Part shown: positions 1,922 through 62,616 of the stretch, one piece after another
Position numbering within the stretch: the first letter of the stretch is position 1
How the letters are laid out: every line of letters starts with the position of its first letter
Assembly: GCF_000767055.1 (NCBI RefSeq)
Contig: NZ_CP006764.1
Span: forward strand, 1,984,001 to 2,048,000
DNA length: 64,000 bases
DNA from: Corynebacterium doosanense CAU 212 = DSM 45436
GTDB taxonomy: Bacteria; Actinomycetota; Actinomycetes; Mycobacteriales; Mycobacteriaceae
Direction of reading: 5' to 3'
Translations under genes and position numbers: made by a program
The notes under the pieces: generated by a model
The model's input: only the letters and a program-made list of their open reading frames with translations
What the model was told of the DNA's origin: nothing
Databases searched by the model: none

Positions 1922-2446
1922 TCAGGTCCGGGCGTTGAGTATCTCGACGACCCGCAGCGGCGTCACCGACTTGGGCATACCCGCGTCCTTGCGGGCCTTC
2001 TTCATCGCGGACACCTGGTCGGCGTCGGCCGCCAGGGCCTCCCGGAGCTCCCATACCTCATCGGCGCCGGCGACCCCAACGGGGAAGAGTTTCGGGCGTT
2101 TCCTGGCAACGAGCTTCGCCGCCGTGGCCGGGCCCACCCCGGGCAGTTCCTGCAGGGCCTCGAAAAGCTCCAGTGCTGCGGTGACCTGCTTCTTCTTGGC
2201 CTTGAACAGGTGGGTGTCGTCACCCACCTCGGCCAGGAGCTCGGCGTAGGTGTCCGAGTACAACAGGTCCGCCACCACCTGGCGGGTGAATCCGCGACCG
2301 CCGTGCAGGTAGGCGGCCATGAGGTCGTCCGCGGTGAACCGGTCGGTGGACGGATCCTCCACCAGGCGGTCGAAGCGCGCCTCCAGCCGGCCCGTGTAGG
2401 CGGTGAGGAGCTCGACAGCTTTCTCGTGGTCGTCGATAAGTTTCAT
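1922..2446 (-). CDS. Unrecognised protein with helix-hairpin-helix motif
   Basis: A 174-residue soluble protein. Residues about 101-121 contain LPGVGPATAAKLVARKRP, a classic helix-hairpin-helix like that of DNA glycosylases and other non-specific DNA binders. I see no catalytic Asp in glycosylase context, and no Cys cluster. It may belong to an actinobacterial conserved family of unknown function, so DNA binding is inference from the motif alone. The start at 2446 is 7 bases after TAAGAT, a -10 box whose TAA is the stop codon of the upstream gene. Confidence 0.7.
   Translation of the reverse strand: MKLIDDHEKAVELLTAYTGRLEARFDRLVEDPSTDRFTADDLMAAYLHGGRGFTRQVVADLLYSDTYAELLAEVGDDTHLFKAKKKQVTAALELFEALQELPGVGPATAAKLVARKRPKLFPVGVAGADEVWELREALAADADQVSAMKKARKDAGMPKSVTPLRVVEILNART
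2431..2440 (+). repeat. CGTCGATAAG motif 1
   Basis: Inside the HhH gene near its start; read on the coding strand as CTT-ATC-GAC (Leu-Ile-Asp). Confidence 0.9.
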
Positions 2447-2456
2447 GCCCGCAATC

Positions 2457-3137
2457 TTAATGGCCCGTCTTCACTGCCTGGGCAATCGGCGCGTCGCCGT
2501 CGTGGAAGAAGATGGTCTTGCGCACGGCCTCGGGCTCGTCGAGAGCGGCCGCGATGACCTGGGCGACGTTGCCGCGGGAGGTCTCCGGGACGTCGAGGTC
2601 GGCGCTCTCACCGGAGTTGTCCACGGTGATCATGCCGGAGGGCTCGTCGAGGTTGAGGGCCGACGGGCCGACGATGGTGTAGTCGAGGCGGGAGTTCTTC
2701 AGGTGCTCGTCCGCCTGGGACTTCGCGTTGTAGTAGGGGTACATGCCCTCGTCCTTACTGACGCCGGGCACACGGCCGTCGACAAGCCGGGAGTTGAAGT
2801 AGGAGACCATGACGTAACGGTTGACCTGCGCCTTCTCCGCGGCATCCATGGTGCGGATCGCGGCATCGCGGTCAATGGCCCAGGTAGCGTCGGCGTCGCC
2901 GCCGCCCGCACCGGCCGCCCAGATCACGGCGCCGGCGCCGCGGAACAGGTCGACGAGCTCATCCTCGCTAAGGGAGGCGATGTCGGCCACGACGGGCTCG
3001 GCACCCGTGTCGCGGATGTCGGCGGCCTGCTCCTCCTTGCGGATGATGGAGCGAACGGTGTGCCCGGCGTCGATAAGCAGCGGAGCGGTACGGAGCGCGA
3101 CCTTGCCGTGGCCGCCGATGATGATCACTGTGGACAT
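2457..3137 (-). CDS. NAD(P)-binding (NmrA/atypical SDR) family protein
   Basis: Rossmann-fold protein of 226 residues. The N-terminal IIIGGHGKVALRTAPLL is a dinucleotide-binding turn of the atypical SDR (NAD(P)H-binding, YwnB/NmrA-like) type. The later YYNAKSQADEHLKNS resembles the YxxxK helix. I chose the ATG at 3137 because GAGGAGG lies 7 bases upstream; the frame stays open further up, but that stretch contains the ribosome-binding site itself. Substrate unknown; relatives act as reductases or redox-state sensors. Confidence 0.8.
   Translation of the reverse strand: MSTVIIIGGHGKVALRTAPLLIDAGHTVRSIIRKEEQAADIRDTGAEPVVADIASLSEDELVDLFRGAGAVIWAAGAGGGDADATWAIDRDAAIRTMDAAEKAQVNRYVMVSYFNSRLVDGRVPGVSKDEGMYPYYNAKSQADEHLKNSRLDYTIVGPSALNLDEPSGMITVDNSGESADLDVPETSRGNVAQVIAAALDEPEAVRKTIFFHDGDAPIAQAVKTGH
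3068..3077 (+). repeat. CGTCGATAAG motif 2
   Basis: Inside the NAD(P)-binding gene; coding strand CTT-ATC-GAC. Confidence 0.9.
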
Positions 3138-3204
3138 GTTTTCCTCCTCGTAGGTTGTGCCACCCACGGTAGGTATCCATGAGCGATCTTGCATGAGCCG
3201 GGGT

Positions 3205-3603: not shown

Positions 3604-3607
3604 ACCC

Positions 3608-4426
3608 CTATTGTTGCAGTTCGCTCCACACCGCGTCGTTGGTTTCGGCCCACAGGGGTTTCGCCCAGTCCCCGAAGTCCCGGTCACTCAGCGCGATCAT
3701 GGCGACGCTTCTCGACGGCACCACCCACAGATACGTCCCCGCCATCCCGAAGTGGCCGACAGTCTCCGCCGGCATGGTCGTTCCCGTCCAGTGGGGTGAC
3801 TTCTCCCCCCTGATCTCGAAACCCAGGCCCCAGTCGTTGGGTTTCTGCATCCCGTAGCCCGGCACGATGCCGCGCAGGCCCGGGAACTGCACCGTCATGG
3901 CCTTGCGGGCGGTCGAGGGGGCGAGAAGTTTCGGGTCCAGGAGTTCCGCGGCAAACTTCGTCAGGTCCGCCACGCTCGAGCGCGCCTCATGCCCCGCCGA
4001 TCCCCACAGCTGCGTGTCCGTCATCCCCAGCGGTTCGAAGACACCGAGCCGGAGGTACTCCGCGAACGACATGTCCGCCTCCTGCGCGACCTTCTCTGCC
4101 AGCCACTCGTACCCGGCGGAGGAATAGATGCGCCTTTCACCGACGGGCTTGGGGTTCTCCCGTGAGTCGAACGCCACCCCGGACGCGTGTGCGAGCAGAT
4201 GCCGCACGGTGGATCCCTCGGGCCCCAGCGGCTCGTCGAACTCCAGCGCCCCCTCCTCCACCGCCATGAGCACACCGTAGGCGCTCAGCAGCTTGGTCAC
4301 GCTGGCCAGCTCGAAGACCCGGTCCACGTCCCCGACGCTCGTCGTCCCTTTTGCGGTAATCACCGCCGCGGCGTGCTTATCGACGGGCCACTGCCCCACC
4401 TTCTCCAACGCGGTTTCCATGCTCAT
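3608..4426 (-). CDS. Serine hydrolase of the beta-lactamase / class C esterase family
   Basis: Penicillin-binding-protein fold, about 272 residues. It shows the SxxK motif (ELASVTKLL, active Ser and Lys), a YSS motif standing for YxN (RRIYSSAGYEW) and HFG in GHFGMAG standing for KTG, as in esterase EstB-like proteins rather than true beta-lactamases. There is no signal peptide, so it is probably cytoplasmic. The start at 4426 (with ATG codons at both 4426 and 4420) is 7 bases from a TACCCT -10 box at 4434-4439, suggesting a leaderless mRNA. The frame is open upstream to 4474 without a better start. Confidence 0.82.
   Translation of the reverse strand: MSMETALEKVGQWPVDKHAAAVITAKGTTSVGDVDRVFELASVTKLLSAYGVLMAVEEGALEFDEPLGPEGSTVRHLLAHASGVAFDSRENPKPVGERRIYSSAGYEWLAEKVAQEADMSFAEYLRLGVFEPLGMTDTQLWGSAGHEARSSVADLTKFAAELLDPKLLAPSTARKAMTVQFPGLRGIVPGYGMQKPNDWGLGFEIRGEKSPHWTGTTMPAETVGHFGMAGTYLWVVPSRSVAMIALSDRDFGDWAKPLWAETNDAVWSELQQ
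4376..4385 (-). repeat. CGTCGATAAG motif 3
   Basis: Inside the serine hydrolase gene as GTC-GAT-AAG (Val-Asp-Lys). Confidence 0.9.
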
Positions 4427-6728: not shown

Positions 6729-6742
6729 GCGCGCCACCCTAG

Positions 6743-7780: not shown

Positions 7781-7816
7781 CGTGCCGATCTTTCCACAGC
7801 CCCCGGGAAATCGACG

Positions 7817-7826
7817 CTTATCGACG
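7817..7826 (-). repeat. CGTCGATAAG motif 4
   Basis: Intergenic, between the BrkB gene and the divergent 165-residue protein gene. Confidence 0.9.
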
Positions 7827-8370: not shown

Positions 8371-9887
8371 GCCTCCTCGTCGCCCAGGAGGTGAGCCGCC
8401 GCCCGCTCCGCGATCATGATGGTCGGCGCGTTGGTGTTGCCCGTGGTGATGAGCGGCATGATCGAGGCGTCCGCCACCCGGATCCCACTGAGTCCGTGAA
8501 CCCGGAAGGTACGTGGATCGACGACGGCGAGTTCGTCGAGTCCCATCCGGCAGGTGCCCACCTGGTGGTGATAGGTCACGGCCGTGGAGCGCACGTAGTC
8601 GATGAGGTCCTCGTCGGAATCTGACACCTCGGGCCCCGGGTAGATCTCCTCGGGTTCCCACTCCCCCAGCGCGGCGGTACGGCCGATCTCGCGACACTGG
8701 CGCACGGAGGCGGCGAGGGCGCGGGCGTCCTCCTTGTCCCGCAGGGCGCCGAGGTCGACGTTGACGGGGTCGTCCTCGCCCGGCCCGCTGAGGGTGACCG
8801 AGCCGCGGGACAGCGGCCGGACGAGGCCTGCCACCAGGGAGAATCCGTTCTCGGGGCCGGTCATGTCGTCGAGGAAGTACATGGGTAGTGAGAAGTTGAT
8901 GGGTTGGGTGTCCGGCACGGCGAGGTCGGGGTCGCTCTTCCAGAACAGGTGGGTCTCCGCAGCGGCCACCTCGGGCGGGGGAACCTCGCGGGCATGGGTG
9001 GTAAAGATGACCGGCGACAGCAGGTGGTCGTGCAGGTTCCTGCCCACCCCGGGGAGATCGTGCACCGGGTCGACGCCGACCTCCGCGAGCTCCTCGGCCG
9101 GGCCGATGCCGGAGCGCAGCAGAATCTCCGGCGAACCCAGCGCGCCGGCGCAGAGGATCGTCTCGGCGGCCTCGAGGGTCTTCACCTCTCCGTCGTGGCG
9201 GAACTCCACGCCGGTGATCCGGCCGTCGGCGACCAGGAGGCGCAGGACATGGGAATCGATGTAGATGCGCAGGTCGGGGTTGTCCATCTCCGGCCTGAGG
9301 TAGGCGTGCCAGGTGTTGAAGCGCTTGCCGTCGCGCACGTTGAGCTGCATCTTCGATACCCCGTCAACCTCGCCGGTGTTGTAGTCCTCGTTGAGTTCGA
9401 GGCCCCACTCGACCGCGCCGTCGAGGATGGACTGCTGGATGGGGTTGAGGTCGAAGTCGCTCGTGACGTCGAGGAACCCGTCGCCGCCACGGCTGTCGGA
9501 CCCGCCGCCGCTGTAGTTCTCGATCGCCTTGAACACCGGGAGCACGTCGTCGTATCCCCACCCCGGGCAACCGAGGTAGTTCCACGTGTCGTAGTCCTGC
9601 CGCGGCCCGCGCACCCAGATGGTGGCGTTGAGCGCGTGCGAGCCGCCCATGACCTTGCCGCGCGGGAGGTTGAGGCGGCGCCCGTGACAACCCTCCTGCT
9701 CGGTGGTGACGTAGTTCCAGTCCTCCGGCCCGCGCCAGAGCGCTCCGGCGGCGGCGACGTCGGCGATGATCGGATTGGTGTCCTGGCCGCCGGCCTCGAG
9801 AATCGCGACGGTGTGCCCGGCGTCGAGAAGCTGCTTTGCGACGACGTTGCCCGCCGATCCCGCGCCGACGACGATGTAGTTCAGCAT
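8367..9887 (-). CDS. GMC-family FAD oxidoreductase (choline dehydrogenase-like)
   Basis: A 506-residue flavoprotein. The N-terminal YIVVGAGSAGNVVAKQLLDA is the ADP-binding Rossmann motif. The GMC signatures follow: NLPRGKVMGGSHALNATIW, and the catalytic-His region TYHHQVGTCRMG near residue 448 with the conserved NTNAPTIMIAERAA end. The family oxidises alcohols such as choline, glucose or polyethylene glycols. No betaine aldehyde dehydrogenase is adjacent, so a choline substrate is not supported by context. GGGAGG precedes the ATG. The MarR gene lies just upstream on the same strand. Confidence 0.9.
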   Translation of the reverse strand: MLNYIVVGAGSAGNVVAKQLLDAGHTVAILEAGGQDTNPIIADVAAAGALWRGPEDWNYVTTEQEGCHGRRLNLPRGKVMGGSHALNATIWVRGPRQDYDTWNYLGCPGWGYDDVLPVFKAIENYSGGGSDSRGGDGFLDVTSDFDLNPIQQSILDGAVEWGLELNEDYNTGEVDGVSKMQLNVRDGKRFNTWHAYLRPEMDNPDLRIYIDSHVLRLLVADGRITGVEFRHDGEVKTLEAAETILCAGALGSPEILLRSGIGPAEELAEVGVDPVHDLPGVGRNLHDHLLSPVIFTTHAREVPPPEVAAAETHLFWKSDPDLAVPDTQPINFSLPMYFLDDMTGPENGFSLVAGLVRPLSRGSVTLSGPGEDDPVNVDLGALRDKEDARALAASVRQCREIGRTAALGEWEPEEIYPGPEVSDSDEDLIDYVRSTAVTYHHQVGTCRMGLDELAVVDPRTFRVHGLSGIRVADASIMPLITTGNTNAPTIMIAERAAAHLLGDEEA

Positions 9888-11741: not shown

Positions 11742-13064
11742 ATGCGTATGTCTGTCATCGGCACCGGTTACCTCGGCGCGACCCACGCCGCCTGCATGGC
11801 GGAACTCGGCCACGAAGTCATCGGCGTCGACGTCGACGAGAGCAAGATCGCCCTGCTCTCCGACGGCAAGGTCCCCTTCTACGAGCCTGGTCTGCCCGAG
11901 ATCCTCGAGCGCAACCTCACCGAGGGTCGCCTCCGGTTCTCCACCGACTACCGCGAGGCCGCGGAGTACGCCAACGTGCACTTTCTCGGTGTCGGCACGC
12001 CGCAGCAGCGCGGTAGCTACGCGGCAGACCTGACCTACGTCCGGGACACCATCGCCACGCTCGTTCCCCTGCTCAAGGGTGATCACCTCATCCTGGGCAA
12101 GTCCACCGTCCCCGTCGGCACCGCCGCCGAGCTGCAGGACCTCGCGGACCTGCTCGCCCCCGAGGGCACCACGGTGGAGATCGCGTGGAACCCCGAGTTC
12201 CTCCGCGAGTCCCACGGCGTCGACGACACCATTCACCCCGACCGCATCGTCGTCGGGCTTCGCGACGGTTCCCCCGCCGAGCCCACCGTCCGCGAGATCT
12301 ACGCCTCGCAGCTCGCCGAGGGCATTCCGTTCCTGGTCACCGACCGGCAGACCGCCGAGCTGGTCAAGGTGTCCGCCAACTCCTTCCTGGCCACCAAGAT
12401 CAGCTTCATCAACGCGGTCGCCGAGCTATGCGAGGCCTCGGGCGCCGACGTCGTCGCGCTCGCCGACGCCATCGGCCACGACGACCGCATCGGCCGCAAG
12501 TTCCTCGGTGCCGGCCTCGGCTTCGGCGGCGGCTGCCTGCCCAAGGACATCCGGGCCTTCATGGCCCGCGCGGGCGAGCTCGGCGCGGACCAGGCGCTGA
12601 GCTTCCTCCGCGAGGTGGACACCATCAACATGCGCCAGCGCGACCGCGTGGTGCAGTTCGCCAAGGACACCTTCGGCGGCTCACTCCTGGGCCACCGGGT
12701 GACGGTCCTGGGCGCGGCGTTCAAGGCCAACTCCGACGACGTGCGTGACTCCCCCGCCCTCAACGTGGCCGGTCAGCTGTCCCTCTCCGGCGCGGCCGTG
12801 AGTGTCTTCGACCCGCAGGCCATGGCCAACGCCCGCAAGGTGTTCCCCACCCTGACCTACGCGGACTCGCTCACCGACGCGCTCTCCGGCGCCGAGCTGG
12901 TCATCCTTGCCACGGAATGGCAGGAATTCCGGGACATGGACCCGCAGGAGGTGGGAAAGGTCGTCGACAAGCCCAACATCATCGACGCGCGCAACGTCCT
13001 GGACCCGGTGCAGTGGCGCGACGCCGGCTGGAACATCCGCGCGATGGGGCGCACGCTGAGCTAG
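11742..13064 (+). CDS. ugd: UDP-glucose 6-dehydrogenase
   Basis: Oxidises UDP-glucose to UDP-glucuronate with two NAD+. The 440-residue length is typical. It has the N-terminal Rossmann site MSVIGTGYLGATHAACMAELGHEV, the substrate-binding segment NPEFLREGxA-like (NPEFLRESHGV) and the catalytic cysteine C265 in FGGGCLPKDIRAF. The product feeds polysaccharide or cell-envelope synthesis. The ATG at 11742 follows TAAGGT (11728-11733) by 8 bases; a second ATG lies at 11748. The stop overlaps the next convergent gene by CTAG. No capsule cluster is adjacent. Confidence 0.93.
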   Translation: MRMSVIGTGYLGATHAACMAELGHEVIGVDVDESKIALLSDGKVPFYEPGLPEILERNLTEGRLRFSTDYREAAEYANVHFLGVGTPQQRGSYAADLTYVRDTIATLVPLLKGDHLILGKSTVPVGTAAELQDLADLLAPEGTTVEIAWNPEFLRESHGVDDTIHPDRIVVGLRDGSPAEPTVREIYASQLAEGIPFLVTDRQTAELVKVSANSFLATKISFINAVAELCEASGADVVALADAIGHDDRIGRKFLGAGLGFGGGCLPKDIRAFMARAGELGADQALSFLREVDTINMRQRDRVVQFAKDTFGGSLLGHRVTVLGAAFKANSDDVRDSPALNVAGQLSLSGAAVSVFDPQAMANARKVFPTLTYADSLTDALSGAELVILATEWQEFRDMDPQEVGKVVDKPNIIDARNVLDPVQWRDAGWNIRAMGRTLS

Positions 13065-13966
13065 CGGGCCTGCCACGCGAGCCAGGCGCTGATGAACTCA
13101 CGTTCGTTGTGCCGGCCCTCGTCGGTCTCGTCCTCATGCATGGCTCGCAGGATCTCCTCGAAGGAATAGTCCGGGTCAGGGACCTCCGGTTCCGGACTCT
13201 CGCTTTTCGACGTTTCGCTGCGCCCCTTCCTCCCCCGCCGCGTGGCCGACCGTGCCAGGTGTGCGATCTGGCGCGCCGTCATGGTCGCCGGGGCAAAATC
13301 CGGGTCCGTGCCCAGCGTCCAGCCGAACCAGTGTGAGGCGATGGCCAGACCCGAGCCCACGAGCAGCCCGAGGATCATGCCCACGGCCTGCATGTCCGAG
13401 TGGTGGAAGACCGCGCACACCGCGGCGGCCGCGACCGCGGGAATCACGGCGAGCTGATTGCCGCCGAACACCTGCGGTCGGTGGCCGGTGACCACGTCCC
13501 GGATCATCCCGCCGCCCGTCGCGGTGAGCACGCCCATGAACAGGGCCGAGAGGACCGGGAGTCCGAACGTCAGCGCCTTGGTGGCTCCCGTGACGGCCCA
13601 CGAGCCAGCGATGATCGCGTCCGCGTGTGCAGAAACCCGGTCCCACAACGGCCCCCGGAAGTGGAACAGCCAGGCAATCAACGCGCCGGAGAACGCGAGG
13701 ATGAGGTACTCCGGCGAGGCTACCGCGGCGACGGTGCCGCGCTGGATCAGGGCGTCGCGCACCATTCCCCCTCCCAGTGCGGAGAAGAGGGCGAGGAAGA
13801 AGAATCCGATGATGTCGTACTCCTGCCTACGCGCAACCGTGCCACCGACAACCCCCATGAGGAAGACGCCGGTGATGTCGATGTAGCGGTAGAGGGCCTG
13901 CACCCCGGGTTGGGCCTGCTGGGGATCGAGGAGCTGGGGAAGAAAGTCGAGGGTCACGGGCCCCAT
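13061..13966 (-). CDS. TRIC/UPF0126 family cation channel-like membrane protein (second copy)
   Basis: A 301-residue paralogue of the protein at 862-1896. The same two-repeat core carries FSALGGGMVRDALIQRGTVA and TATGGGMIRDVVTGHRP, with a shorter charged tail (about 80 residues). The segments between the motifs match the first copy closely, including the aromatic SPEYLILAF / TPEYLLLAF piece. It is convergent with ugd (shared CTAG) and lies downstream of the ferritin gene across a stem-loop. Confidence 0.85.
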   Translation of the reverse strand: MGPVTLDFLPQLLDPQQAQPGVQALYRYIDITGVFLMGVVGGTVARRQEYDIIGFFFLALFSALGGGMVRDALIQRGTVAAVASPEYLILAFSGALIAWLFHFRGPLWDRVSAHADAIIAGSWAVTGATKALTFGLPVLSALFMGVLTATGGGMIRDVVTGHRPQVFGGNQLAVIPAVAAAAVCAVFHHSDMQAVGMILGLLVGSGLAIASHWFGWTLGTDPDFAPATMTARQIAHLARSATRRGRKGRSETSKSESPEPEVPDPDYSFEEILRAMHEDETDEGRHNEREFISAWLAWQAR

Positions 13967-15381: not shown

Positions 15382-16526
15382 AGCACCGCCGTAGCTGCCA
15401 CGACACTCACCGGCGCAAGTACCAGCCCGCACAGGACAAACCGACCCCAGCCGATGCGCAGCCCCTGGCGCCCGGCCTGCTCCGCCCAGAGCAGCGTGGC
15501 CAGCGTCGCCCACGGGGTGATGACCGATCCCGCATTGACCCCGATGAGCAGCGCCATCAGCCCCTCCCTCGACCCCAGGGCCGGCTCCAGCGCGAGGTAG
15601 GCCGGGATGTTGTTCACCACGTTGGCCAGCACTGCGCCGCAGGCAGCGACAGCGAGGGGGGCGTCGATGAGCGAGGCCACGGCTCCGGTGACCGCATCCA
15701 GCAACCCCAGCCGGTGAACCAGCGCCGCCACCGCGGTGAGCGCGAGGGTGAGAATGAGTGAACCCCACGGCACCAGCGACAGGCGCAGACCCGACCGGTT
15801 CCATCTCGCGGTCAACCCCAGCGCCACCGCCGCGGCCGCCCCGGCGCTCACCCACACGGGGAGCGGAGACAGGAGCGCCCCGAGCAGCACCGCCAGGAGC
15901 AGGGAGAACATCACGGCCGGCCTCGTCCACCGAGGCCGCTCCGCCGCGCGTCGCTCCCCCTGCGGCCCCACCGGCGTCAGCCAGGGCACGATCGCCGCCA
16001 CCGCGAGCAGCACCAGCGCAGCCCGCCATGAGGCCGACACAAAATCCGCCGTGCCGGAGAACGCCGGTGTCTGCACCGCCAGCAGGTTGGTGAGGTTGGA
16101 GATCGGCAGCAGCAGCGATCCGAGATTCGCCGTCCACACCACCGTGAGCGCCGCGCGCAGGGGATGGAGCCCCGCGGACGCGGCCAGCTTCAGTGCGATC
16201 GGGGTGAGCAGGATCGCGGTGGTGTCCAGCGAGAAAAAGACGGTGGACACGACACTGGCGCCGAAGATCAGCACCCAGGTGGCCACCGCTTCTCGACGCC
16301 CGTTGCCCCGGATCCCCAGGCCCGCGCGCAGCGACCCCAGCAGAATGTCGAAGGTCCCCAACCCGTCGGCGGCGTTGACCACCACGGCCATGAACGCGAC
16401 AAAAGCCAGCACGGGAACGACCCGGGCGCCATAGTCCGCGAGCGCGTGCAGGTCGGTGGCCGCCAGCGCCCCCAGGGCGAGGACGGCCACCACGGGAAAC
16501 ACGAGGGAGGTGACGGCGGGCTTCAC
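15378..16526 (-). CDS. ArsB/SLC13-like anion or ion permease
   Basis: A 382-residue protein, almost entirely hydrophobic, with about ten helices. The two inverted half-motifs of the ArsB/NhaD/SLC13 ion-transporter superfamily are visible: NLGSLLLPISNLTNLLAV in the first half and LANVVNNIPAYLAL in the second. ArsB proteins export arsenite, but no ArsR, ArsC or Acr genes are adjacent, so the substrate remains open. The stop overlaps the frameshifted gene by TTAG. Confidence 0.75.
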   Translation of the reverse strand: MKPAVTSLVFPVVAVLALGALAATDLHALADYGARVVPVLAFVAFMAVVVNAADGLGTFDILLGSLRAGLGIRGNGRREAVATWVLIFGASVVSTVFFSLDTTAILLTPIALKLAASAGLHPLRAALTVVWTANLGSLLLPISNLTNLLAVQTPAFSGTADFVSASWRAALVLLAVAAIVPWLTPVGPQGERRAAERPRWTRPAVMFSLLLAVLLGALLSPLPVWVSAGAAAAVALGLTARWNRSGLRLSLVPWGSLILTLALTAVAALVHRLGLLDAVTGAVASLIDAPLAVAACGAVLANVVNNIPAYLALEPALGSREGLMALLIGVNAGSVITPWATLATLLWAEQAGRQGLRIGWGRFVLCGLVLAPVSVVAATAVL

Positions 16527-51440: not shown

Positions 51441-51449
51441 GAAAGAACG

Positions 51450-51502
51450 TATCGACGCCCGTTTCCCACTCATTGTGGAAAACGGGCGTCGATAAGTTTT
51501 TT
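51450..51502 (+). terminator. Terminator after CNNM pair, carrying the CGTCGATAAG motif
   Basis: A perfect 15-bp stem, TATCGACGCCCGTTT (51450-51464) / AAACGGGCGTCGATA (51480-51494), with extra pairing in the loop and T6 at 51497-51502. The right arm contains CGTCGATAAG; the left arm has the near copy CGTATCGACG. Confidence 0.93.
51487..51496 (+). repeat. CGTCGATAAG motif 11
   Basis: Forms the right arm of the terminator after the CNNM pair. Confidence 0.9.
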
Positions 51503-52352: not shown

Positions 52353-54248
52353 CTAGCGGGTGCGGTAGAGCTTCTCGATGTCCTTGGCGTAGGTCTCGAA
52401 CACGACGTTGCGCTTGACCTTCATCGTCGGGGTCAGCTCGCCCTCGCCCTCGGTGAGGTCGCGGTCGAGGATGCGGAACTTCTTGATGCCCTCGGACTTG
52501 GACACCGTGAGGTTGACGCTGTTGATGGCGTTCTGGATCTCCGCCTGCAGCTCCCGGCCGGCCGCGAGTTCCTTGACGGACTTCGAGGCGGGGATGCCGT
52601 GGGACTTCTTCCAGCGGTCGAACTCCTCCTCGTCCAGCGTGACCAGCAGGCCCGGGAAGGGCTTGCCGTCGCCGACGACGAGCGCCTGGGAGATGAGCGG
52701 GTGCTCGCGGAGCACCTCCTCCATGGGGGCGGGGGAAATGTTCTTGCCACCCGCGGTGACGATGAGATCCTTCTGGCGGCCCGTGATGAAGATGTGGCCC
52801 GTCTCGGAAATCCTGCCCAGGTCACCGGTGCGGAACCAGCCGTCGTTGAGCGCCTCGGCGGTGGCCTCAGGGTTGTTCCAGTAGCCGGCGAAGACGCCGC
52901 CTCCCTTGATGCAGAGCTCGCCCTCCTTGTTCACGCGGGCCGCGAAACCGTTGAGCGGCTGACCGATGGATCCGATGACGGGGTCCTCGTAGTTCACCGC
53001 GCAGGCCGCGGTGGTCTCGGTGAGGCCGTAGCCCTCGTAGACCGCAACGCCGGCGCCGCGGAAGAAGTGCAGGAGTTCGGAGTTGATGGCGGAGCCGCCG
53101 GAGATGGCCACGCCAACCTCGTTGCCCAGGGCGGTGCGGAGCTTGGAGTAGACGAGGCGTTCGAAGAGTTTGCGCTCCGCCTTGAGCCGACGGCTCGGTC
53201 CCTCGGGGGTGTCCTGTGCCTTGGAGAAGTCGATCGCGACCCGCTCGGCACGGCGGAAGACTTCGGCCGCAATGGGGCTCTTGCCAGCGGCCTGGTTGTA
53301 GGCGCTGTTACGCACCTTCTCGTAGACGCGGGGGACACCGAGGATGAGCTCCGGGCGGAACCTGGCGAAGGCGGTGGTGAGCGTGTTGGTGTCCGACCAG
53401 TGCGCCTGGGTCGCGCCACCGACGATGACGGCCAGGGTCACCGCGCGGGACAGCACGTGCGCCAGCGGCAGATAGGTGATGGTGCGACGGCCCGGGCGGG
53501 CGAGGGCTGCGACCTGGTCGTTCATCAGTGCGCGGACCTCGAAGATCCAGTTGTAGTGCGTGAGTTCGCAGCCCTTCGGGCGGCCGGTGGTGCCCGAGGT
53601 GTAGTTGATGGAGGAGACCGCGTCGTGCTTGATGGCGGCTACTCGACGGTCGACCTCAGCCTGGTCACCGGCGCGGCCGGTGAACTTCAGGGTGTTCACG
53701 GCGTCGGAGTTGATCTCCAGCACCTGGCGGAGCTTCGACTTGGATCCGGCGAGCTTGGGGGTGCCGTCTTCCTGCAGGAGCAGGTGATCGAACTTGTCGG
53801 TGTGCTCGCGGGTCTCGGTGATGGCCAGCACCGCCCCGGAGTCCTCCACGATCCACTCGATCTGGTGGGTGGAGGACGTGGGGTAGATGGGCACCACGAT
53901 GCCACCGGCGCACCAGATGGCGAAGTCGATGAGGTTCCACTCGTAGCGGGTCTCAGAGAGCAGGACGATACGGTCGCCCTCCTCGATTCCCAGGGCGATG
54001 AGGCCCTTGGCGACCTCGTCCACCTCTTTGACAAATTCCTTGGCGGTGACGTTGACCCAGTCGAAACCCTCCGGGCGGATGAAGAGGACGGAATCCGGGC
54101 TCTCCTTGGCGAACTGGCGGAGCGCGGTCACACAGTTGTCATCTTCCGGGATCGTGAATCGCGCGGGCGCCGAATAGACGGTATCGCCCTGATAATCGCT
54201 GATCTCGATCGGAACAGTCGTGCCGGTGGCTAGCTTAACTTCAGACAT
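52353..54248 (-). CDS. fadD15: Long-chain fatty acid-CoA ligase (FadD15-like)
   Basis: Activates fatty acids to acyl-CoA through an acyl-AMP. 631 residues. The AMP-binding P-loop is INYTSGTTGRPKGCELTH; further ANL motifs are YEGYGLTETTAACAV, WFRTGDLGRI and the C-terminal GRQKDLIVTAGGKNISP. The length and ending match the actinobacterial FadD15 group. AAGGA precedes the ATG. Divergent from malQ. Confidence 0.92.
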   Translation of the reverse strand: MSEVKLATGTTVPIEISDYQGDTVYSAPARFTIPEDDNCVTALRQFAKESPDSVLFIRPEGFDWVNVTAKEFVKEVDEVAKGLIALGIEEGDRIVLLSETRYEWNLIDFAIWCAGGIVVPIYPTSSTHQIEWIVEDSGAVLAITETREHTDKFDHLLLQEDGTPKLAGSKSKLRQVLEINSDAVNTLKFTGRAGDQAEVDRRVAAIKHDAVSSINYTSGTTGRPKGCELTHYNWIFEVRALMNDQVAALARPGRRTITYLPLAHVLSRAVTLAVIVGGATQAHWSDTNTLTTAFARFRPELILGVPRVYEKVRNSAYNQAAGKSPIAAEVFRRAERVAIDFSKAQDTPEGPSRRLKAERKLFERLVYSKLRTALGNEVGVAISGGSAINSELLHFFRGAGVAVYEGYGLTETTAACAVNYEDPVIGSIGQPLNGFAARVNKEGELCIKGGGVFAGYWNNPEATAEALNDGWFRTGDLGRISETGHIFITGRQKDLIVTAGGKNISPAPMEEVLREHPLISQALVVGDGKPFPGLLVTLDEEEFDRWKKSHGIPASKSVKELAAGRELQAEIQNAINSVNLTVSKSEGIKKFRILDRDLTEGEGELTPTMKVKRNVVFETYAKDIEKLYRTR

Positions 54249-57059: not shown

Positions 57060-58346
57060 ATGAGCGCACCCGTGTCCGTCAGCTGCCCCGCCGGCGAAGT
57101 CACCGGCATCTCCTACGACGACGGCACCGACCGCTTCCACTCCATCGCCTACTCCGAGATCGACGACAACTTCGCCGACGCCCGCAAGCGCCCAGCCGGC
57201 GAGGAGATCGACGCCCGCGTGCCCCGCCCCGAGTCCGTCGCGCTGACGGTGCTGCGTCCCGGAGGCACGACCTCGGGGGCGGATCTGCCGGTCATCGTCT
57301 ACATCCACGGCGGCAGCTTCGAGACGGGCAGCCACGAGGACCCCCGCTCCCCCGGCGCGGGCTGCGCCGACTCCGGGGCCGTGGCCGTGCGGGTCGGCTA
57401 CCGCACGGGCATCGCGGGCATGGCGAGATTCCGCGGCGACGAGCCCGCCCACCACCGCGCGATCGACGACTGCCAGCTCGCCCTCGAATGGGTGCAGAAG
57501 AACATCGAGGACTTCGGCGGAGACCCCACCAACGTCACCCTCGTGGGCCAGTCCGCCGGGGCGTCGATCGCCCTGTGGCTGACCCGGCGCGATCACTACC
57601 GCGGCGCGTTCCGACGGGTGCTCGCCTGCTCCCCCGCCTTCCCGCGCCGCGGTTGGGAGGACCGCACCGGGCTCTTCCGCACCTTCCTGGGCAAGCCTCT
57701 GACCCGGGACTCCCTGCGCCGGCAGCCACCCGAGCGCCTCGACCGCGCCTACCGACGCCTCAAACGCACCCTCTTTCTCGACCTCCCGCTGGGCCCGTTT
57801 CCCCTGCAGCCGGAGGAGATGGCGGAGGTCGACCTGGTGGTGACGTGCACCCGCGACGAGTTCTACGACATGCCCGCCGCCCGGGTCATGGACAAACGCG
57901 GCAACGGCCACCTCTACACCCGGGTCATCGCCCGCCCCATGGGCATGACGGGCACCTATCGCAGCTGGCTGGACTCCACCCGCGAGGTCGCACCCGGGAA
58001 GACGGCGTCGAGGCTGGTGGGCGACTCGATGATCCGCCGGTGGACGCAGTATGTCGCCGACGGTGCCCCGGGGCGGGTGTGGCTGGCGGAATTCACCGGC
58101 ACCCCGCAGCACCCGGCCGTCCACTGCGGCGAGTTGCCGGCGCTGTTCGCCGCCGAGGGATACGACACAAATTTCCCCGTGCACCGCTGGCTGATGAACT
58201 TCGCCCATACGGGTGAGGTCGGCTGGCCGGAGTACTCCGAGGGCAGGCAGGCGATGGAGATCTCGCTTGTCGACGGTCGTTTCACGCCCACCGTCGATCC
58301 CCTCCGGATCGCCCGCCTGGCGTTTCCCGATCCCTACCGCGACTAG
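57060..58346 (+). CDS. Carboxylesterase type B (p-nitrobenzyl esterase-like)
   Basis: A 428-residue alpha/beta hydrolase. Oxyanion loop VIVYIHGGSFETGS; nucleophile TLVGQSAGASIALWLT, GxSxG at about residue 164. It is shorter than the usual 500-residue type B enzymes and has no signal peptide. TAGGAT (57046-57051) lies 8 bases before the ATG, so it is leaderless; this promoter lies back to back with the tiny-gene operon. The stop is in a CTAG shared with idi. Confidence 0.85.
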   Translation: MSAPVSVSCPAGEVTGISYDDGTDRFHSIAYSEIDDNFADARKRPAGEEIDARVPRPESVALTVLRPGGTTSGADLPVIVYIHGGSFETGSHEDPRSPGAGCADSGAVAVRVGYRTGIAGMARFRGDEPAHHRAIDDCQLALEWVQKNIEDFGGDPTNVTLVGQSAGASIALWLTRRDHYRGAFRRVLACSPAFPRRGWEDRTGLFRTFLGKPLTRDSLRRQPPERLDRAYRRLKRTLFLDLPLGPFPLQPEEMAEVDLVVTCTRDEFYDMPAARVMDKRGNGHLYTRVIARPMGMTGTYRSWLDSTREVAPGKTASRLVGDSMIRRWTQYVADGAPGRVWLAEFTGTPQHPAVHCGELPALFAAEGYDTNFPVHRWLMNFAHTGEVGWPEYSEGRQAMEISLVDGRFTPTVDPLRIARLAFPDPYRD

Positions 58347-58900
58347 CTGGCCGTGCGGGCGAGCTCGGCGCGCAGGCGGTCGTCGCCAAGCTCCTTGACC
58401 AGCCACGGCGAGAACGCCGGCGGAGCGGCGTCGACCGCAGCGAAGAGCTGGTCGGCGGCGATCCAGAACGACGAGTCGACCTCGTCGGGGTGCGGGTTGA
58501 GCGGGGAGTCGTCGCGAAGCGAGACGACGTAGACGGGGCAGATCTCGTTTTCGACGATCCCGGAGGAGTCGGTGGCGCGGTAGGAGAAGTCGCCCAGCAC
58601 CTCGCGGATGTCCGTGAGGTTGTCCGGGTCGATGCCAAGTTCCTGCGCGGCGCGGCGGCGGATCGCGTCCGGGGTCGATTCCCCGGGGCCGGGGTGGCCG
58701 CAGAAGCTGTTGGTCCACACGCCCGGCCAGGCGATCTTGCTCAGGGCGCGGCGGGTGAGCAGGACGCGGCCGCGGGAGTCGACGAGGTAGGCGGAGAAGG
58801 CGAAATGAAGCGGGGTGTCGTCGGTGTGGACGGTCGCCTTGTCCGCGGTGCCCGAGGGTCGGCCGTGGGCATCGGCGAGTACGACGTACTCGTCAGACAA
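58343..58900 (-). CDS. idi: Isopentenyl-diphosphate delta-isomerase (type 1)
   Basis: A 185-residue Nudix-fold enzyme that converts IPP to DMAPP for isoprenoid synthesis. Catalytic C67 in TNSFCGHPGPGES, the Nudix helix RRRAAQELGID and catalytic E119 in IVENEICPVYVV. I chose the TTG at 58900, with GGAAGGG 8 bases upstream; no ATG exists in the right place. It overlaps the lipoprotein gene by 8 bases. Together with uppS it serves polyprenyl supply. Confidence 0.92.
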   Translation of the reverse strand: MSDEYVVLADAHGRPSGTADKATVHTDDTPLHFAFSAYLVDSRGRVLLTRRALSKIAWPGVWTNSFCGHPGPGESTPDAIRRRAAQELGIDPDNLTDIREVLGDFSYRATDSSGIVENEICPVYVVSLRDDSPLNPHPDEVDSSFWIAADQLFAAVDAAPPAFSPWLVKELGDDRLRAELARTAS

Positions 58901-59495: not shown

Positions 59496-61472
59496 GTGGC
59501 GACGAGCGTGAGAAACCTGCTCTCCCGCATGTCCCTTCTGAAAGTGAATCACCCCGGAAACGTGTCACCCCTCGTCAAGATCCTCCGCAACACCTCCAGC
59601 CTGTGGCCGTTTTACCTGGGCATCTTTCTCGTCGCCGTCCTCGGCGCGGGACTCGGCCTGATCACCCCCTTCCTCATCAGCGACGCGACCGACACCATCG
59701 TGTCCTCCCTGCGCGGGGAGACCGACGCGGCCGACGCCACCCGCACCATTCTCTGGCTCGCCGGCGGCCTCCTGCTCGCCGAGCTGGCCTACACCGTGAC
59801 CACCAACGTCGGCGGCTACTACGGCGACGTGATGAGCTCCCGGCTGCGCCAGATCCTCTCCACCCGCTACTACGCCAAGCTGCTGGCCCTGCCGCAGAAG
59901 TACTTCGACAAGCAGGTCACCGGCACGATCATCGCGCGCCTGGACCGCTCCATCACGGGCATCACCCAGTTCCTGCAGTCGATCTCCAACAACTTCCTGC
60001 CCATGATCATCCAGGTGGTGGCCATCCTGGTGATCACCTCGTTCTACTACTGGCCGCTGACGAACCTGCTGCTGCTCGTCTTCCCCGTCTACATGTGGCT
60101 CACGGCGCTGACCTCGCCGCGCTGGCAGCGCCTCGAGGGCGAGAAGAACGAGCAGGTGGACCTGGCCAACGGCCGGTTCTCCGAGACGGTGAGCCAGGTC
60201 AAGGTGGTCAAGTCCTTCGTCGCGGAGGTCCGCGAGCTCGACTTCTTCGGGCGTCGCTACGGCCGCACGGTCGAGGTCACCCGCCCGCAGTCGCGCTGGT
60301 GGCATCAGATGGACGTGCTGCGCGGCGCGGCGATGAACATCATCTTCTTCGGCATCTACCTGGTCATCTTCCGCCGCACCTTGAGCGGCGACTTCTCCAT
60401 CGGCGACATGGTCATGCTCATCCAGCTGGTCAACATGGCCCGCCAGCCGGTGCACATGATGAGCTGGATCGTCGACTCCGCGCAGCGTGCGATCGCCGGC
60501 TCGAAGGACTACTTCGCCGTCATGGACGAGGACTTCGAACCCACTGCCAACACCCAGCTCATCGCCGCGACCAGGGAGACCGGGGTGCCGGAGCTTGTCG
60601 ACGCCTCCCCGCAGCCCCTTCGCCCCACCCCGGACGAGCCGGTCATCGAGCTCTCGCACGTCACCTTCGCGTACGAGCCGGGCAAACCCGTGCTCAGCGA
60701 CGTGTCCTTCACCGCGCGGCAGGGCGACAAGATCGCGCTGGTGGGGGAGTCGGGCGGCGGCAAGTCGACCGTGGTCAACCTCATGCTCGGCCTCTACCGC
60801 GCCACCGGGGGTTCCATGCGCCTGGCCGGGCATGACGTCCGCGACCTGGGCGTGGAGGAGATCCGCTCCTCGGTCGGCGTGGTGTTCCAGGAGTCCTACC
60901 TCTTCTCCGGGTCGGTTGCCGACAACATCGCCTACGGCAAGCCGGGCGCGTCCCGGGAGGAGATCGAGTCCGTGGCCCGGCGCGCCAACGCCCACGACTT
61001 CATCATGGCCTTCCCCGACGGCTACGACACCGTCATCGGCGAGCGTGGCCTGCGCCTGTCCGGCGGGCAAAAGCAGCGGGTGTCCGTCGCCCGCGCGATG
61101 CTCAAGGACGCTCCGATCCTCGTCCTGGACGAGGCCACCAGCGCCCTGGACAACAAGGCCGAACGTGCGGTGCAGGCGGGTCTGGACGAGCTGATGAAGG
61201 ACCGCACCACGCTGATCATCGCGCACCGCCTCTCCACCATCGCGGACGTGGACACCATCGTCACCCTCATCGACGGCCACGTCGGCGAGGTCGGCTCCCC
61301 CGCCGAGCTCGCTGTCTCCGGCGGCGTATACGCCGAGCTCCTACGCCTGACGGCCTCGAGTTCCGCGGCCGACCGCAAGCGGCTGCGTGAGTTCGGCTTC
61401 GTCGGCGACGCCCCCGTCGTCTCCGGGGAGGAGGACGACGAGGACGAGTGGGAGCCCTCCGCCGGAAGCTAG
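59496..61472 (+). CDS. ABC exporter, fused membrane and ATPase domains
   Basis: 658 residues: a six-helix ABC membrane domain (about 25-340) and an ATPase domain (about 390-620) with Walker A GESGGGKST, signature LSGGQKQR, Walker B ILVLDEATSA and H-loop IIAHRL. A half-size exporter of the MsbA/LmrA type, so a homodimer is expected. Substrate unknown. Start uncertain: GTG 59496, GTG 59508 or ATG 59529. Its stop TAG forms part of the aecD -10 box. Confidence 0.9.
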   Translation: MATSVRNLLSRMSLLKVNHPGNVSPLVKILRNTSSLWPFYLGIFLVAVLGAGLGLITPFLISDATDTIVSSLRGETDAADATRTILWLAGGLLLAELAYTVTTNVGGYYGDVMSSRLRQILSTRYYAKLLALPQKYFDKQVTGTIIARLDRSITGITQFLQSISNNFLPMIIQVVAILVITSFYYWPLTNLLLLVFPVYMWLTALTSPRWQRLEGEKNEQVDLANGRFSETVSQVKVVKSFVAEVRELDFFGRRYGRTVEVTRPQSRWWHQMDVLRGAAMNIIFFGIYLVIFRRTLSGDFSIGDMVMLIQLVNMARQPVHMMSWIVDSAQRAIAGSKDYFAVMDEDFEPTANTQLIAATRETGVPELVDASPQPLRPTPDEPVIELSHVTFAYEPGKPVLSDVSFTARQGDKIALVGESGGGKSTVVNLMLGLYRATGGSMRLAGHDVRDLGVEEIRSSVGVVFQESYLFSGSVADNIAYGKPGASREEIESVARRANAHDFIMAFPDGYDTVIGERGLRLSGGQKQRVSVARAMLKDAPILVLDEATSALDNKAERAVQAGLDELMKDRTTLIIAHRLSTIADVDTIVTLIDGHVGEVGSPAELAVSGGVYAELLRLTASSSAADRKRLREFGFVGDAPVVSGEEDDEDEWEPSAGS

Positions 61473-61475
61473 GGT
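61470..61475 (+). promoter_or_regulatory. -10 box TAGGGT of aecD containing the ABC gene stop
   Basis: TAG ends the ABC exporter; 7 bases separate the hexamer from the aecD ATG. Confidence 0.7.
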
Positions 61476-61482
61476 GGGTGGC

Positions 61483-62616
61483 ATGGATTTTCCGACTCTC
61501 GAGCAACTCAAGGCACGCACCACCCGCAAGTGGACCGTCTACGACGAGGACATTATTCCGTTGTGGATCGCCGAGTCCGACTTTCCCACCGCCCCGGCGG
61601 TCAAGGCGAACATCACCCGCATGGTGGAGCAGGAGGCCTTCGGTTACACCCCGGCCTCCTCCGACCTTCCCGAGGCGCTGGCGGACTTCTACCAGCAGCG
61701 TTACGGCTGGCGCCCCGACCCCACCAAGGTCCGGCCCGTGCCCGACGTCGTGCGCGGCATGGTGCTCGCCGTGCAGCACTTCACCCGCCCGGACTCCGAG
61801 GTCATCGTCCCCGTCCCCGCCTACCCGCCCTTCAACGAGCTGCCCGAGGCAGCCGGGCGCGGCAAGGTGGAGATCGGCTCCGAGGGTGGCATCGACCTCG
61901 CCGAGGTCGCGGGAGCCTTCAAGGCCGGCGCCGGGTCGATCCTGCTGGCCAACCCCAACAACCCCTTCGGCTACGTCTACGACGAGGACTTCCTCCGCGG
62001 GCTGGTGAACATCGCCGACAAGTACGGTGCCCGGGTGATCGTGGATGAAATTCATGCGCCGGTGGTCCTCGACGGGGACCACGTGGTCGCGGCGTCGATA
62101 AGCGAGACCGCCGCCGAGGTCTGCCTCACCGTCACGGCCACGTCCAAGGCCTGGAACATCGCCGGGCTCAAGTGCGCGCAGATGATCTTCACCAACGACG
62201 CCGACATGAAGACGTGGAGCTCGCTGACCGGCGTGAGCAAGGACGGCACCGGCACGCTGGGCATTTTCGCCGCCGCCGCGTGTTACCGCGAGGGCGTGGA
62301 ATACCTCGACGAGCAGATCGACTACCTGCGCGACAACCTCGACTGGCTCATGGAAGCGCTGCCGGCCGCGGTCCCCGGGATCCGTCTCGTGCGACCCCAG
62401 GCGACCTACCTGCTCTGGCTCGACTTCAGCGACACGGCCATCGGCGAGCTCGAGCAGCCCGCCGCCTGGCTGCGCAAGAACGCGCGGGTGGCGCTCAACG
62501 AGGGCACGACCTTCGGCCCCGGCGGCGAGCACCACGCGCGCCTGAACTTCGCCACCAGCCGCGAACTGCTCACCGAGGCCGTCGACCGCATGGCCAAGGC
62601 TTTCGCCGCGGCGTAG
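61483..62616 (+). CDS. aecD: Cystathionine beta-lyase (C-S lyase, MalY/PatB type)
   Basis: A 377-residue PLP enzyme splitting cystathionine to homocysteine, pyruvate and ammonia. Substrate and cofactor segments: NPNNPFGYVYD, VDEIHAPVVLDG and the PLP lysine K222 in TATSKAWNIAGLKCA. In Corynebacterium aecD stands directly before brnQ; here one kinase gene lies between. Leaderless start. Confidence 0.93.
   Translation: MDFPTLEQLKARTTRKWTVYDEDIIPLWIAESDFPTAPAVKANITRMVEQEAFGYTPASSDLPEALADFYQQRYGWRPDPTKVRPVPDVVRGMVLAVQHFTRPDSEVIVPVPAYPPFNELPEAAGRGKVEIGSEGGIDLAEVAGAFKAGAGSILLANPNNPFGYVYDEDFLRGLVNIADKYGARVIVDEIHAPVVLDGDHVVAASISETAAEVCLTVTATSKAWNIAGLKCAQMIFTNDADMKTWSSLTGVSKDGTGTLGIFAAAACYREGVEYLDEQIDYLRDNLDWLMEALPAAVPGIRLVRPQATYLLWLDFSDTAIGELEQPAAWLRKNARVALNEGTTFGPGGEHHARLNFATSRELLTEAVDRMAKAFAAA
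62093..62102 (+). repeat. CGTCGATAAG motif 12
   Basis: In aecD, read in a different frame (TCG-ATA-AGC), using the rare codon ATA. Confidence 0.9.

What the first reader, a model, noticed from the sequence alone, without database searches (positions are those of the whole stretch)
2431..62102. Strongly over-represented 10-mer CGTCGATAAG (12 copies in 64 kb)
Exact copies at 2431, 3068, 4376(-), 7817(-), 16927, 29806(-), 44111, 45917, 47692, 47768(-), 51487 and 62093. With four A/T beyond the usual in a roughly two-thirds GC genome I estimate well under one expected copy. In 10 of 12 the next base is C. Nine copies are inside unrelated genes, in three reading frames (Leu-Ile-Asp with the uncommon CTT, Val-Asp-Lys, and Ser-Ile-Ser with ATA), so protein sequence does not explain them. 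One forms a terminator arm and two are intergenic. This is how DNA uptake sequences, polarising motifs (KOPS/Chi type) or nucleoid-protein sites behave. I know of no such motif described for Corynebacterium.
Basis: partly seen in the sequence, partly recalled or inferred. Interest (0 to 1): 0.78.

Follow-up and report, generated by a model that had tools for sequence, protein, structure and literature searches.

The report
Corynebacterium's self-DNA uptake word
Most of the Corynebacterium genomes searched carry hundreds to two thousand copies of one short DNA word, spelled in dialects that differ between lineages and rare in the plasmids and phages examined; it likely marks a cell's own kind of DNA for uptake by a competence pilus, as in Neisseria, and would be the first such code we know of outside Gram-negative bacteria.

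Summary
CGTCGATAAG occurs 12 times in the window (0.06 expected) and 319 times in the genome. It is the local form of a degenerate word, CRTCGnnAAGC: 1105 copies here against 75 for the reversed control, and at least four times control in 184 of 242 genomes of the genus (median about 1130 copies). Codon-preserving shuffles do not explain it in this genome or in 11 of 11 other carriers; 8 of 8 genomes without it sit at shuffle level. Lineages spell it differently (CG/AT, CG/TC, CA/GC, CA/AC); the CA spelling is nested as one group. A G-rich stretch lies 5' of the word in CG and CA genomes alike. No replication strand bias was seen; plasmids and phages nearly lack it. Carriers have ComEA-type, ComEC, DprA and Tad genes; of 31 genomes with a weak-scoring Tad ATPase, 29 lack the word. 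One species, G012, carries an unrelated word 644 times. Best reading: a DNA uptake sequence with dialects, read by a Tad-type competence pilus. Uptake and receptor are untested.

The parts
2431..2440 (+). exact CGTCGATAAG (next base T), antisense in ORF 1922-2446
2777..2787 (+). family copy CGTCGACAAGC
3068..3078 (+). exact CGTCGATAAGC, antisense in ORF (Leu-Ile-Asp)
3707..3717 (-). family copy CGTCGAGAAGC
4375..4385 (-). exact CGTCGATAAGC, sense in ORF (Val-Asp-Lys)
7816..7826 (-). exact CGTCGATAAGC, outside called ORFs
9821..9831 (+). family copy CGTCGAGAAGC
9833..9843 (-). family copy CGTCGCAAAGC
12257..12267 (-). family copy CGTCGCGAAGC
12962..12972 (+). family copy CGTCGACAAGC
13202..13212 (-). 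family copy CGTCGAAAAGC
16288..16298 (-). family copy CGTCGAGAAGC
16927..16937 (+). exact CGTCGATAAGC, outside called ORFs, with G-rich stretch 5'
25309..25319 (+). family copy CGTCGAGAAGC
26420..26430 (-). family copy CGTCGAGAAGC
29805..29815 (-). exact CGTCGATAAGC, antisense in ORF (Leu-Ile-Asp)
30316..30326 (+). family copy CGTCGAGAAGC
30957..30967 (+). family copy CGTCGCAAAGC
38800..38810 (+). family copy CGTCGACAAGC
39477..39487 (-). family copy CGTCGGGAAGC
39680..39690 (+). family copy CGTCGAAAAGC
44111..44121 (+). exact CGTCGATAAGC, antisense in ORF 43527-44237 (Leu-Ile-Asp)
45917..45927 (+). exact CGTCGATAAGC, antisense in ORF 45411-46442 (Leu-Ile-Asp)
47692..47702 (+). exact CGTCGATAAGC, antisense in ORF 47654-49015 (Leu-Ile-Asp)
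47767..47777 (-). exact CGTCGATAAGC, sense in ORF 47654-49015 (Val-Asp-Lys)
48514..48524 (+). family copy CGTCGACAAGC
50153..50163 (-). family copy CGTCGAGAAGC
51448..51457 (-). variant CGTCGATACG, 5' arm of the terminator-like hairpin
51487..51496 (+). exact CGTCGATAAG followed by a run of T, 3' arm of the terminator-like hairpin between convergent ORFs
52370..52380 (-). family copy CATCGAGAAGC (the other spelling; rare here)
58265..58275 (-). family copy CGTCGACAAGC
58381..58391 (+). family copy CGTCGCCAAGC
58510..58520 (+). family copy CGTCGCGAAGC
60593..60603 (-). family copy CGTCGACAAGC
62093..62103 (+). exact CGTCGATAAGC, sense in ORF (Ala-Ser-Ile-Ser)
62788..62798 (-). family copy CGTCGACAAGC
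63682..63692 (-). family copy CGTCGAGAAGC

Best explanation
CGTCGATAAG is the local spelling of a genus-wide 11-base word, C[G/A]TCGnnAAGC with a G-rich stretch on its 5' side, and it likely works as a DNA uptake sequence: a protein on the Tad (Flp) competence pilus would bind it on free DNA, so that the cell would preferentially import DNA of its own kind through ComEA and ComEC. Shown: the abundance, the strictness of the core, the dialects, the lack of replication polarity in the sample, the near-absence from the plasmids and phages examined, and the presence of the genes. Inferred: that repeated uptake and recombination of word-bearing fragments keeps seeding and preserving copies, and that a change in the receptor produced the dialects. 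Untested: any binding, uptake or transformation, and which protein is the receptor.
For: Abundance: 319 exact copies; CRTCGnnAAGC 1105 against 75 reversed; at least four times control in 184 of 242 genus genomes. Not coding: shuffles in this genome and in 11 of 11 other carriers, with 8 of 8 genomes lacking the word at shuffle level. Strict core: for CGTCGATAAGC, 0-1 copies of each one-base variant at positions 1-6 and 10 against 61 exact, while position 7 is free and 9 takes A or C. Dialects: position 2 is mostly G or mostly A by genome and positions 6-7 vary; CA genomes group together (99/97) among CG genomes on a 26-row helicase tree, with the word-less G042 in the same group. G-rich 5' stretch: G 0.40-0.61 over 10- or 20-base bins against a background of 0.28-0.36 in 12 of 12 CG or CA genomes with 17 or more copies and in L037, and in intergenic, sense and antisense copies of G000 alike (0.49, 0.44, 0.45). 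No replication bias. Mobile DNA: 6 copies in 231 kb of 5 plasmids and 2 phages, control 2. In genes the reverse complement is commoner, 375:206 over 12 genomes, as reported for uptake sequences in most Pasteurellaceae and in Neisseria (PMC2346458). Genes: ComEC in 241 of 242, ComEC, ComEA and a Tad locus in G000, DprA 38 of 38 and prepilin peptidase 38 of 38, 36 over the cut-off. Weak-scoring Tad ATPase: 29 without the word, 1 with, 1 between; strong: 15, 177, 11. Tad genes are required for transformation in the actinobacterium Micrococcus luteus (PMC4322843).
Against: No uptake or transformation data exist in these calls, and none for Corynebacterium was found. ComEC, DprA and prepilin peptidase are also present in genomes that lack the word, so they do not discriminate. 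The Tad association is largely one clade (8 of the 9 weak-Tad genomes in the tree, 100/100; the ninth, G011, is its neighbour at 93/91), so the Fisher p of 3e-24 overstates independent evidence, and the weak/strong cut was set after seeing the scores. Fifteen strong-Tad genomes lack the word; in G042 no broken competence gene was seen. In the four CA genomes tested only 5 of 164 copies are intergenic, which an uptake tag does not predict. At 66-75% nucleotide identity single sites are no better kept than random sequence (6 of 50), which fits a drifting tag but does not prove it. Inverted-pair terminators, common in Neisseria (PMC3630211), are rare: 7 intergenic inverted pairs among 1068 adjacent pairs, 2 folding strongly. 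The TadE-like minor pilins show no DNA-binding feature to my eye (not tested). Plasmids and phages are lower in GC than this chromosome, and the host's dialect is known for two of them only.
Confidence: 0.7

Rival explanations
1. A Chi-like site: the word on DNA entering a break-repair helicase-nuclease (AdnAB type) would switch it to recombination, and dialects would follow the enzyme.
For: Abundance and asymmetry of the word; species differences in Chi are known (recalled). Rarity in plasmids and phages would also fit.
Against: No bias with respect to replication, whereas Chi is usually biased (recalled). No RecC family member in 30 of 30 genomes, carriers and non-carriers alike. AdnAB itself was not searched, so nothing here links it to the word or excludes it.
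Confidence: 0.12
2. A binding site of a nucleoid-organising or other chromosomal protein, kept for chromosome structure, whose specificity differs between lineages.
For: Hundreds of scattered copies at near-random spacing (CV 0.95), strict core, absent from some lineages.
Against: Sites turn over between species (6 of 50 kept at 66-75% identity); plasmids nearly lack it; the compositional flank and the orientation bias in genes match uptake sequences; a sampled clade of eight genomes lives without it.
Confidence: 0.1
3. A by-product of codon or protein usage, or of mutation bias, in high-GC genomes.
For: Six of nine genic copies in the window are Leu-Ile-Asp; most genic CRTCGnnAAGC copies share one frame; in four CA genomes only 5 of 164 copies are intergenic.
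Against: Codon-preserving shuffles, CA genomes included; intergenic copies as dense as genic ones in G000 (0.57 against 0.47 per kb); genomes of similar GC at background; one-base neighbours nearly absent at seven of eleven positions.
Confidence: 0.02
4. A polarising motif for chromosome segregation (KOPS or matS type).
For: Non-palindromic and repeated.
Against: No polarity in the 484 kb sampled round the G000 chromosome: 118:117, and 105:130 at the most biased of 253 splits. Whole-genome forward and reverse totals cannot test this.
Confidence: 0.01

Closest known systems
Neisseria DNA uptake sequence (DUS) and its dialects, read by minor pilin ComP (PMC3630211 abstract and passages; PMC12040237 and PMC6370729 passages; PMC2346458 part 1 of 3)
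   Same: A 10-12 base word in a thousand or more copies per genome; an invariant core with lineage dialects congruent with phylogeny; reverse complement commoner in genes.
   Different: Unrelated sequence; Gram-positive (mycomembrane) host; Tad rather than type IVa pilus; few inverted-pair terminators; two free positions inside the word; receptor unknown; no uptake data.
Pasteurellaceae uptake signal sequence (USS) (PMC7811141 passages; PMC2346458 part 1 of 3)
   Same: Strict core plus a compositionally biased flank: AT-rich there, G-rich here; hundreds to thousands of copies; a different word in one subclade.
   Different: Sequence, flank composition, host and pilus type; the bias towards gene ends reported there was not seen here.
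Micrococcus luteus Tad (Flp) pilus-dependent natural transformation (PMC4322843 passages)
   Same: Actinobacterium with Tad genes needed for transformation; a Tad locus with TadE-type minor pilins as in G000; ComEA and ComEC present (PMC6370729 passage).
   Different: Two Tad loci there; no uptake word mentioned (0 occurrences of 'uptake sequence' in the text).
Chi sites, KOPS, HIP1 (recalled, no call)
   Same: Short over-represented words.
   Different: Chi and KOPS are strand-biased; HIP1 is palindromic; none has this word.

Membership tests
DNA uptake sequences (DUS/USS) | Hundreds to thousands of copies, both strands, far above codon-constrained expectation | tested here: met
DNA uptake sequences (DUS/USS) | Lineage dialects that follow phylogeny, with an invariant core | tested here: met
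   a tree of 26 genomes on one gene; the CA label needs 2 changes there (5 CA rows), CG needs 3.
DNA uptake sequences (DUS/USS) | Depleted in foreign or mobile DNA | tested here: met
   6 copies in 231 kb, control 2; one motif-free 20 kb stretch of G000 and its lowest-GC genes (0.23 against 0.45-0.61 per kb). GC differs and most hosts' dialects are unknown.
DNA uptake sequences (DUS/USS) | One orientation commoner in genes; no replication strand bias | tested here: met
   375:206; for G000 only.
DNA uptake sequences (DUS/USS) | Host encodes a DNA-uptake machine | tested here: met
   Not discriminating, except the Tad ATPase class.
DNA uptake sequences (DUS/USS) | Frequent inverted pairs serving as terminators (common, not defining) | tested here: not met
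   7 intergenic inverted pairs of 1068 adjacent pairs in 11 genomes, 2 folding strongly.
DNA uptake sequences (DUS/USS) | A pilus-borne receptor specific for the word | tested here: inconclusive
   Tad locus with two TadE-like minor pilins, one of them under its curated cut-off; no candidate singled out.
DNA uptake sequences (DUS/USS) | The word raises DNA uptake and transformation | not testable with these tools
   Needs the bench.
DNA uptake sequences (DUS/USS) | Concentration in genome-maintenance genes (reported for known ones) | not tested
   Mentioned in PMC2346458.
Chi site | Strand bias with respect to replication; cognate RecBCD/AddAB/AdnAB | tested here: not met
   No bias in G000; RecC 0 of 30; AdnAB not searched.
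KOPS | Strong polarity from origin to terminus | tested here: not met
   G000 sample.

The most novel reading that the evidence does not exclude
Corynebacterium has its own self-recognition language for DNA: a genus-wide uptake word with at least four dialects and a G-rich handle, read by a Tad pilus across a mycomembrane, evolved independently of Neisseria and Haemophilus, missing where one clade carries a different Tad pilus, and in one species (G012) replaced by an entirely different word.
Probability: 0.6. Interest if true: 0.93.

Novelty: new variant of a known kind. Interest (0 to 1): 0.87.

Why it matters
DNA uptake sequences are known from Neisseriaceae and Pasteurellaceae; a recent review and a recent study treat them as exceptions (PMC12236230 and PMC12040237, passages). 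A third, independent origin in actinobacteria would show that self-specific transformation evolves repeatedly, link it to Tad pili, and predict natural competence in a genus of skin bacteria, pathogens and industrial strains where our searches found none described. The dialects predict which species exchange DNA with which, and 242 genomes with shifts and losses make the receptor searchable by comparison.

Tried and rejected
Enrichment confined to the window or a mobile element: rejected. Codon or protein explanation: rejected for genic copies. Polar motif: rejected for G000; the equal forward and reverse totals over 184 genomes (104,328 and 104,144) are no test of polarity, since the two arms cancel. 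RecBCD Chi: RecC absent in 30 of 30. Inverted-pair terminators as the source of copies: rejected. ComEC, HHH_3/ComEA type, DprA and prepilin peptidase as the gene that decides presence: not discriminating, though DprA is degraded in G029 and G112, both without the word, and intact in 13 of 13 carriers examined; the other 23 of 25 non-carriers have it intact too. Outside the genus: 14 other actinobacteria reached by locus are at 0.8 to 1.6 times control, and one of the 14, Arcanobacterium, at 2.1 (77 against 37) (one further locus, L086, was not held). The first gene calls (81% coding) missed HemW and were replaced (83%); my gene caller is simple and some intergenic calls may be wrong. In one search the frame tallies of the 10-mer are not comparable with those of the 11-mer and were not used. 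De novo word search in genomes without the word (4 to 80 kb each) found nothing as strong as in G012; weaker excesses (for instance in G011, G206 and G232) were not followed, so other words could be missed. In one search, 13 genomes between two and four times control and 8 with absent or fragmentary TadA were left out of the two-by-two test; G191 and G192, carriers at E about 1e-126, fall just on the strong side of the cut. G021, used as a genome without the word, is at 2.3 times control.
Full report
OBSERVATION. The next base is C in 10 of 12. Nine copies are in ORFs, two outside called ORFs, and one forms the 3' arm of a hairpin of -39.6 kcal/mol followed by a run of T, whose other arm carries the variant CGTCGATACG. 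The genome (2,698,995 bases, two contigs) holds 319 copies, 163 and 156 by strand, and 0 of the reversed control. The density in the window (0.19 per kb) is somewhat above that of the genome (0.12 per kb).

THE REAL WORD. In 444 kb of this genome (19 stretches of 20 kb and the window), CGTCGATAAGC is seen 61 times against 0.14 expected (order-3 Markov). Its one-base neighbours at positions 1-6 and 10 are seen 0 or 1 times each; position 11 allows T (5); position 7 is free (T 61, G 53, C 27, A 14); position 9 takes A or C (61, 34; G and T 2 each); position 8 tolerates a little (G 11 against 2.3 expected). So the word here is CGTCGAnA[A/C]GC with sharp edges, which is what a recognised site looks like, not a mutational haze. 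The G-rich stretch 5' of the word is the same in clean intergenic copies (n=30, G 0.49), sense copies (n=61, 0.44) and antisense copies (n=126, 0.45), so codon structure does not make it. It is present in G199, G009, G001, G004 and the Corynebacterium sp. locus L037 and, in part more weakly, in G055, G070, G237, G005, G069, G053, G106 and G209 (G 0.40-0.49 over 20 bases against 0.28-0.36 in the background; weakest in G237, 0.42 against 0.36); it is absent beside the different word of G012 (0.23 against 0.29).

GENUS. CRTCGnnAAGC was counted in 242 genomes. Against the reversed pattern, 184 are at four times or more (153 to 2032 copies, median 1129.5), 45 are below twice, 13 lie between. Exact CGTCGATAAG alone misses many carriers because of dialects. 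Three named organisms reached by locus carry it: Corynebacterium yonathiae (933 against 68), C. tuberculostearicum SK141 (1039 against 61) and Corynebacterium sp. S3R_St_41 (1524 against 78); 14 other actinobacteria are at 0.8 to 2.1 times control.

DIALECTS. Sampled genomes are mostly of one kind at position 2: CG in G000, G009, G199, G005, G053, G055, G069, G070, G237; CA in G001, G004, G027, G096, G106, G209. Positions 6-7 favour AT in G000, G009 and G199, TC in G005, G055, G069, G070 and G237, GC in G001, AC in G004. On a tree of the neighbouring DEAH helicase from 26 genomes, CA genomes group together (99/97) among CG genomes, with the word-less G042 in the group; CG also occurs in a second place (G055, G237, with the word-less G206 as sister, 100/100). 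The simplest reading is an old word, one nested dialect shift and several losses; repeated gain is not excluded, and this is a one-gene tree with open forks.

NOT CODING. Permuting synonymous codons within genes keeps protein and codon usage. In G000, 57 copies of the 10-mer in genes against 4.4 +- 2.2 (max 12 in 100 shuffles), 187 of CRTCGnnAAGC against 28.6 +- 4.5 (max 39); the other spelling CATCGnnAAGC is below expectation (4 against 7.6) and CCTCGnnAAGC at expectation (12 against 12.9). In 11 of 11 further carriers the local dialect exceeds every one of 60 shuffles and the other spelling exceeds them in none; in 8 of 8 genomes without the word no tested pattern exceeds the shuffles. G053 is the weakest carrier (13 against 4.1, max 9).

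DISTRIBUTION. Copies lie at near-random spacing (mean 1.8 kb, CV 0.95). Strand against replication, taking stretches up to 1.73 Mb as one arm and the rest as the other, is 118 to 117 (from the table); the origin was not located, but for 14 assumed origins with equal arms the split stays between 110:125 and 125:110, and the most biased of 253 splits is 105:130. Genic copies are antisense more often than sense, 375 to 206 over 12 genomes, like the uptake sequences of most Pasteurellaceae and of Neisseria; the bias towards gene ends reported for Pasteurellaceae was not found (KS p 0.36 and 0.31). In four CA genomes only 5 of 164 copies are intergenic, in contrast to CG genomes; unexplained. Between species at 66-75% nucleotide identity few sites stay: 6 of 50 over eleven comparisons (window against L037 2 of 5, L038 1 of 8, L039 1 of 8; L178 against G199 1 of 4, G009 1 of 5, and against G004, G209, G106, G001, G055 and the word-less G042 0 of 20), no more than the 5-15% that random stretches of the same make-up keep; closer pairs keep 4 of 5 (random 19%) and 7 of 9 (random 45%). 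Density is kept while sites move, as expected if a genome-wide process maintains the word.

MOBILE DNA. Five plasmids (one of them contig C2 of G000) and two corynephages, 231 kb in all, hold 6 copies, control 2: 0.026 per kb against 0.41 in the genome. One 20 kb stretch of G000 (150001-170000, GC 0.63) has none, and genes in the lowest GC fifth have about half the density. Lower GC and unknown host dialects weaken this.

MACHINE. G000 has comEC and comEA close together, with one short ORF between, and a Tad locus: TadA ATPase (TIGR03819, 461 bits), a TadB-like ORF (no family match; named by place and size), TadC (T2SSF), a short pilin-like protein (DUF4244), two TadE-like minor pilins (one above its cut-off, one below), then the DEAH helicase. 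ComEC is found in 241 of 242 genomes, HHH_3 proteins in 242 of 242 (the best match in most is a long Tex-like frame, a second one ComEA-like, my reading), DprA and prepilin peptidase in 38 of 38. TadA matches in 239 of 242, 232 over the cut-off. Its score splits the genus: with E of 1e-125 or worse ('weak'), 29 genomes lack the word, 1 has it (G014) and 1 lies between (G021); with better scores 15 lack it, 177 have it, 11 lie between; 8 with absent or fragmentary TadA were left out. In 9 of 10 weak genomes sampled TadB and TadC match one ORF, in G011 two; in 11 of 11 carriers and 6 of 6 strong genomes without the word, two. Eight of nine weak genomes in the tree form one clade, so this is one or few events, not thirty. 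In G112 only the last third of TadC matches and DprA is degraded; DprA is also degraded in G029; both lack the word.

MECHANISM. The best single reading is a DNA uptake sequence. [quoted passage not shown] ComEA and ComEC would bring the DNA in. Word-bearing DNA would be favoured at uptake, recombine, and so spread and preserve the word (molecular drive; recalled, and a title in the reference list shown). Uptake, receptor and drive are inference. G012, with a two-ORF Tad locus, lacks the word but carries CGCGRCGTCAT 644 times (control 6; next highest genome 42), and its 10-base form is above codon shuffles (25 against 1.1): the pattern expected if a receptor can change its word entirely.

LITERATURE. 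No paper describing this word or any uptake sequence in Corynebacterium was found in open-access PMC (for, 20 of 130 papers with a matching string were listed, and I read titles and abstract starts only). A motif survey that included three Corynebacterium species attributes its patterns there to CRISPR repeats (PMC5217627, passages). CHECK.

Noticed in passing
G012 genome (L120, L140, L185): An unrelated word, CGCGRCGTCAT, occurs 644 times (control 6) in this one genome of 242, and its 10-base form exceeds codon-preserving shuffles: a possible second uptake word in the genus.
   Followed up: partly
G001, G004, G106, G209 samples: In CA-dialect genomes the word is almost absent from intergenic DNA (5 of 164 copies), while in CG-dialect genomes it is common there (G055 19 of 46). 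No explanation.
   Followed up: no
G000:C1:161677-162237 (inside L002): A second DprA-family match lies in the 20 kb stretch that has no copy of the word; that stretch ends in an ORF that looks like a transposase to my eye.
   Followed up: no
G029 and G112: DprA scores are much reduced (1.9e-16 and 1.4e-37 against about 1e-57 to 1e-65 in the others) in two genomes that lack the word; in G112 only the last third of TadC matches.
   Followed up: partly
G014: ComEC is split into two weak matches and the Tad ATPase is weak, yet the word is present at about six times control: possibly competence lost recently, with the word still decaying.
   Followed up: no
window 51448-51496: Terminator-like hairpin between convergent ORFs built from one exact copy and one CGTCGATACG variant in inverted orientation; a similar pair lies at L015 12722-12789.
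   Followed up: yes
G000 contig C2 (L020): 27 kb plasmid-like contig, GC 0.59 in the 20 kb read, with IS21- and IS3-type matches to plasmids of other actinobacteria and two copies of the word.
   Followed up: partly
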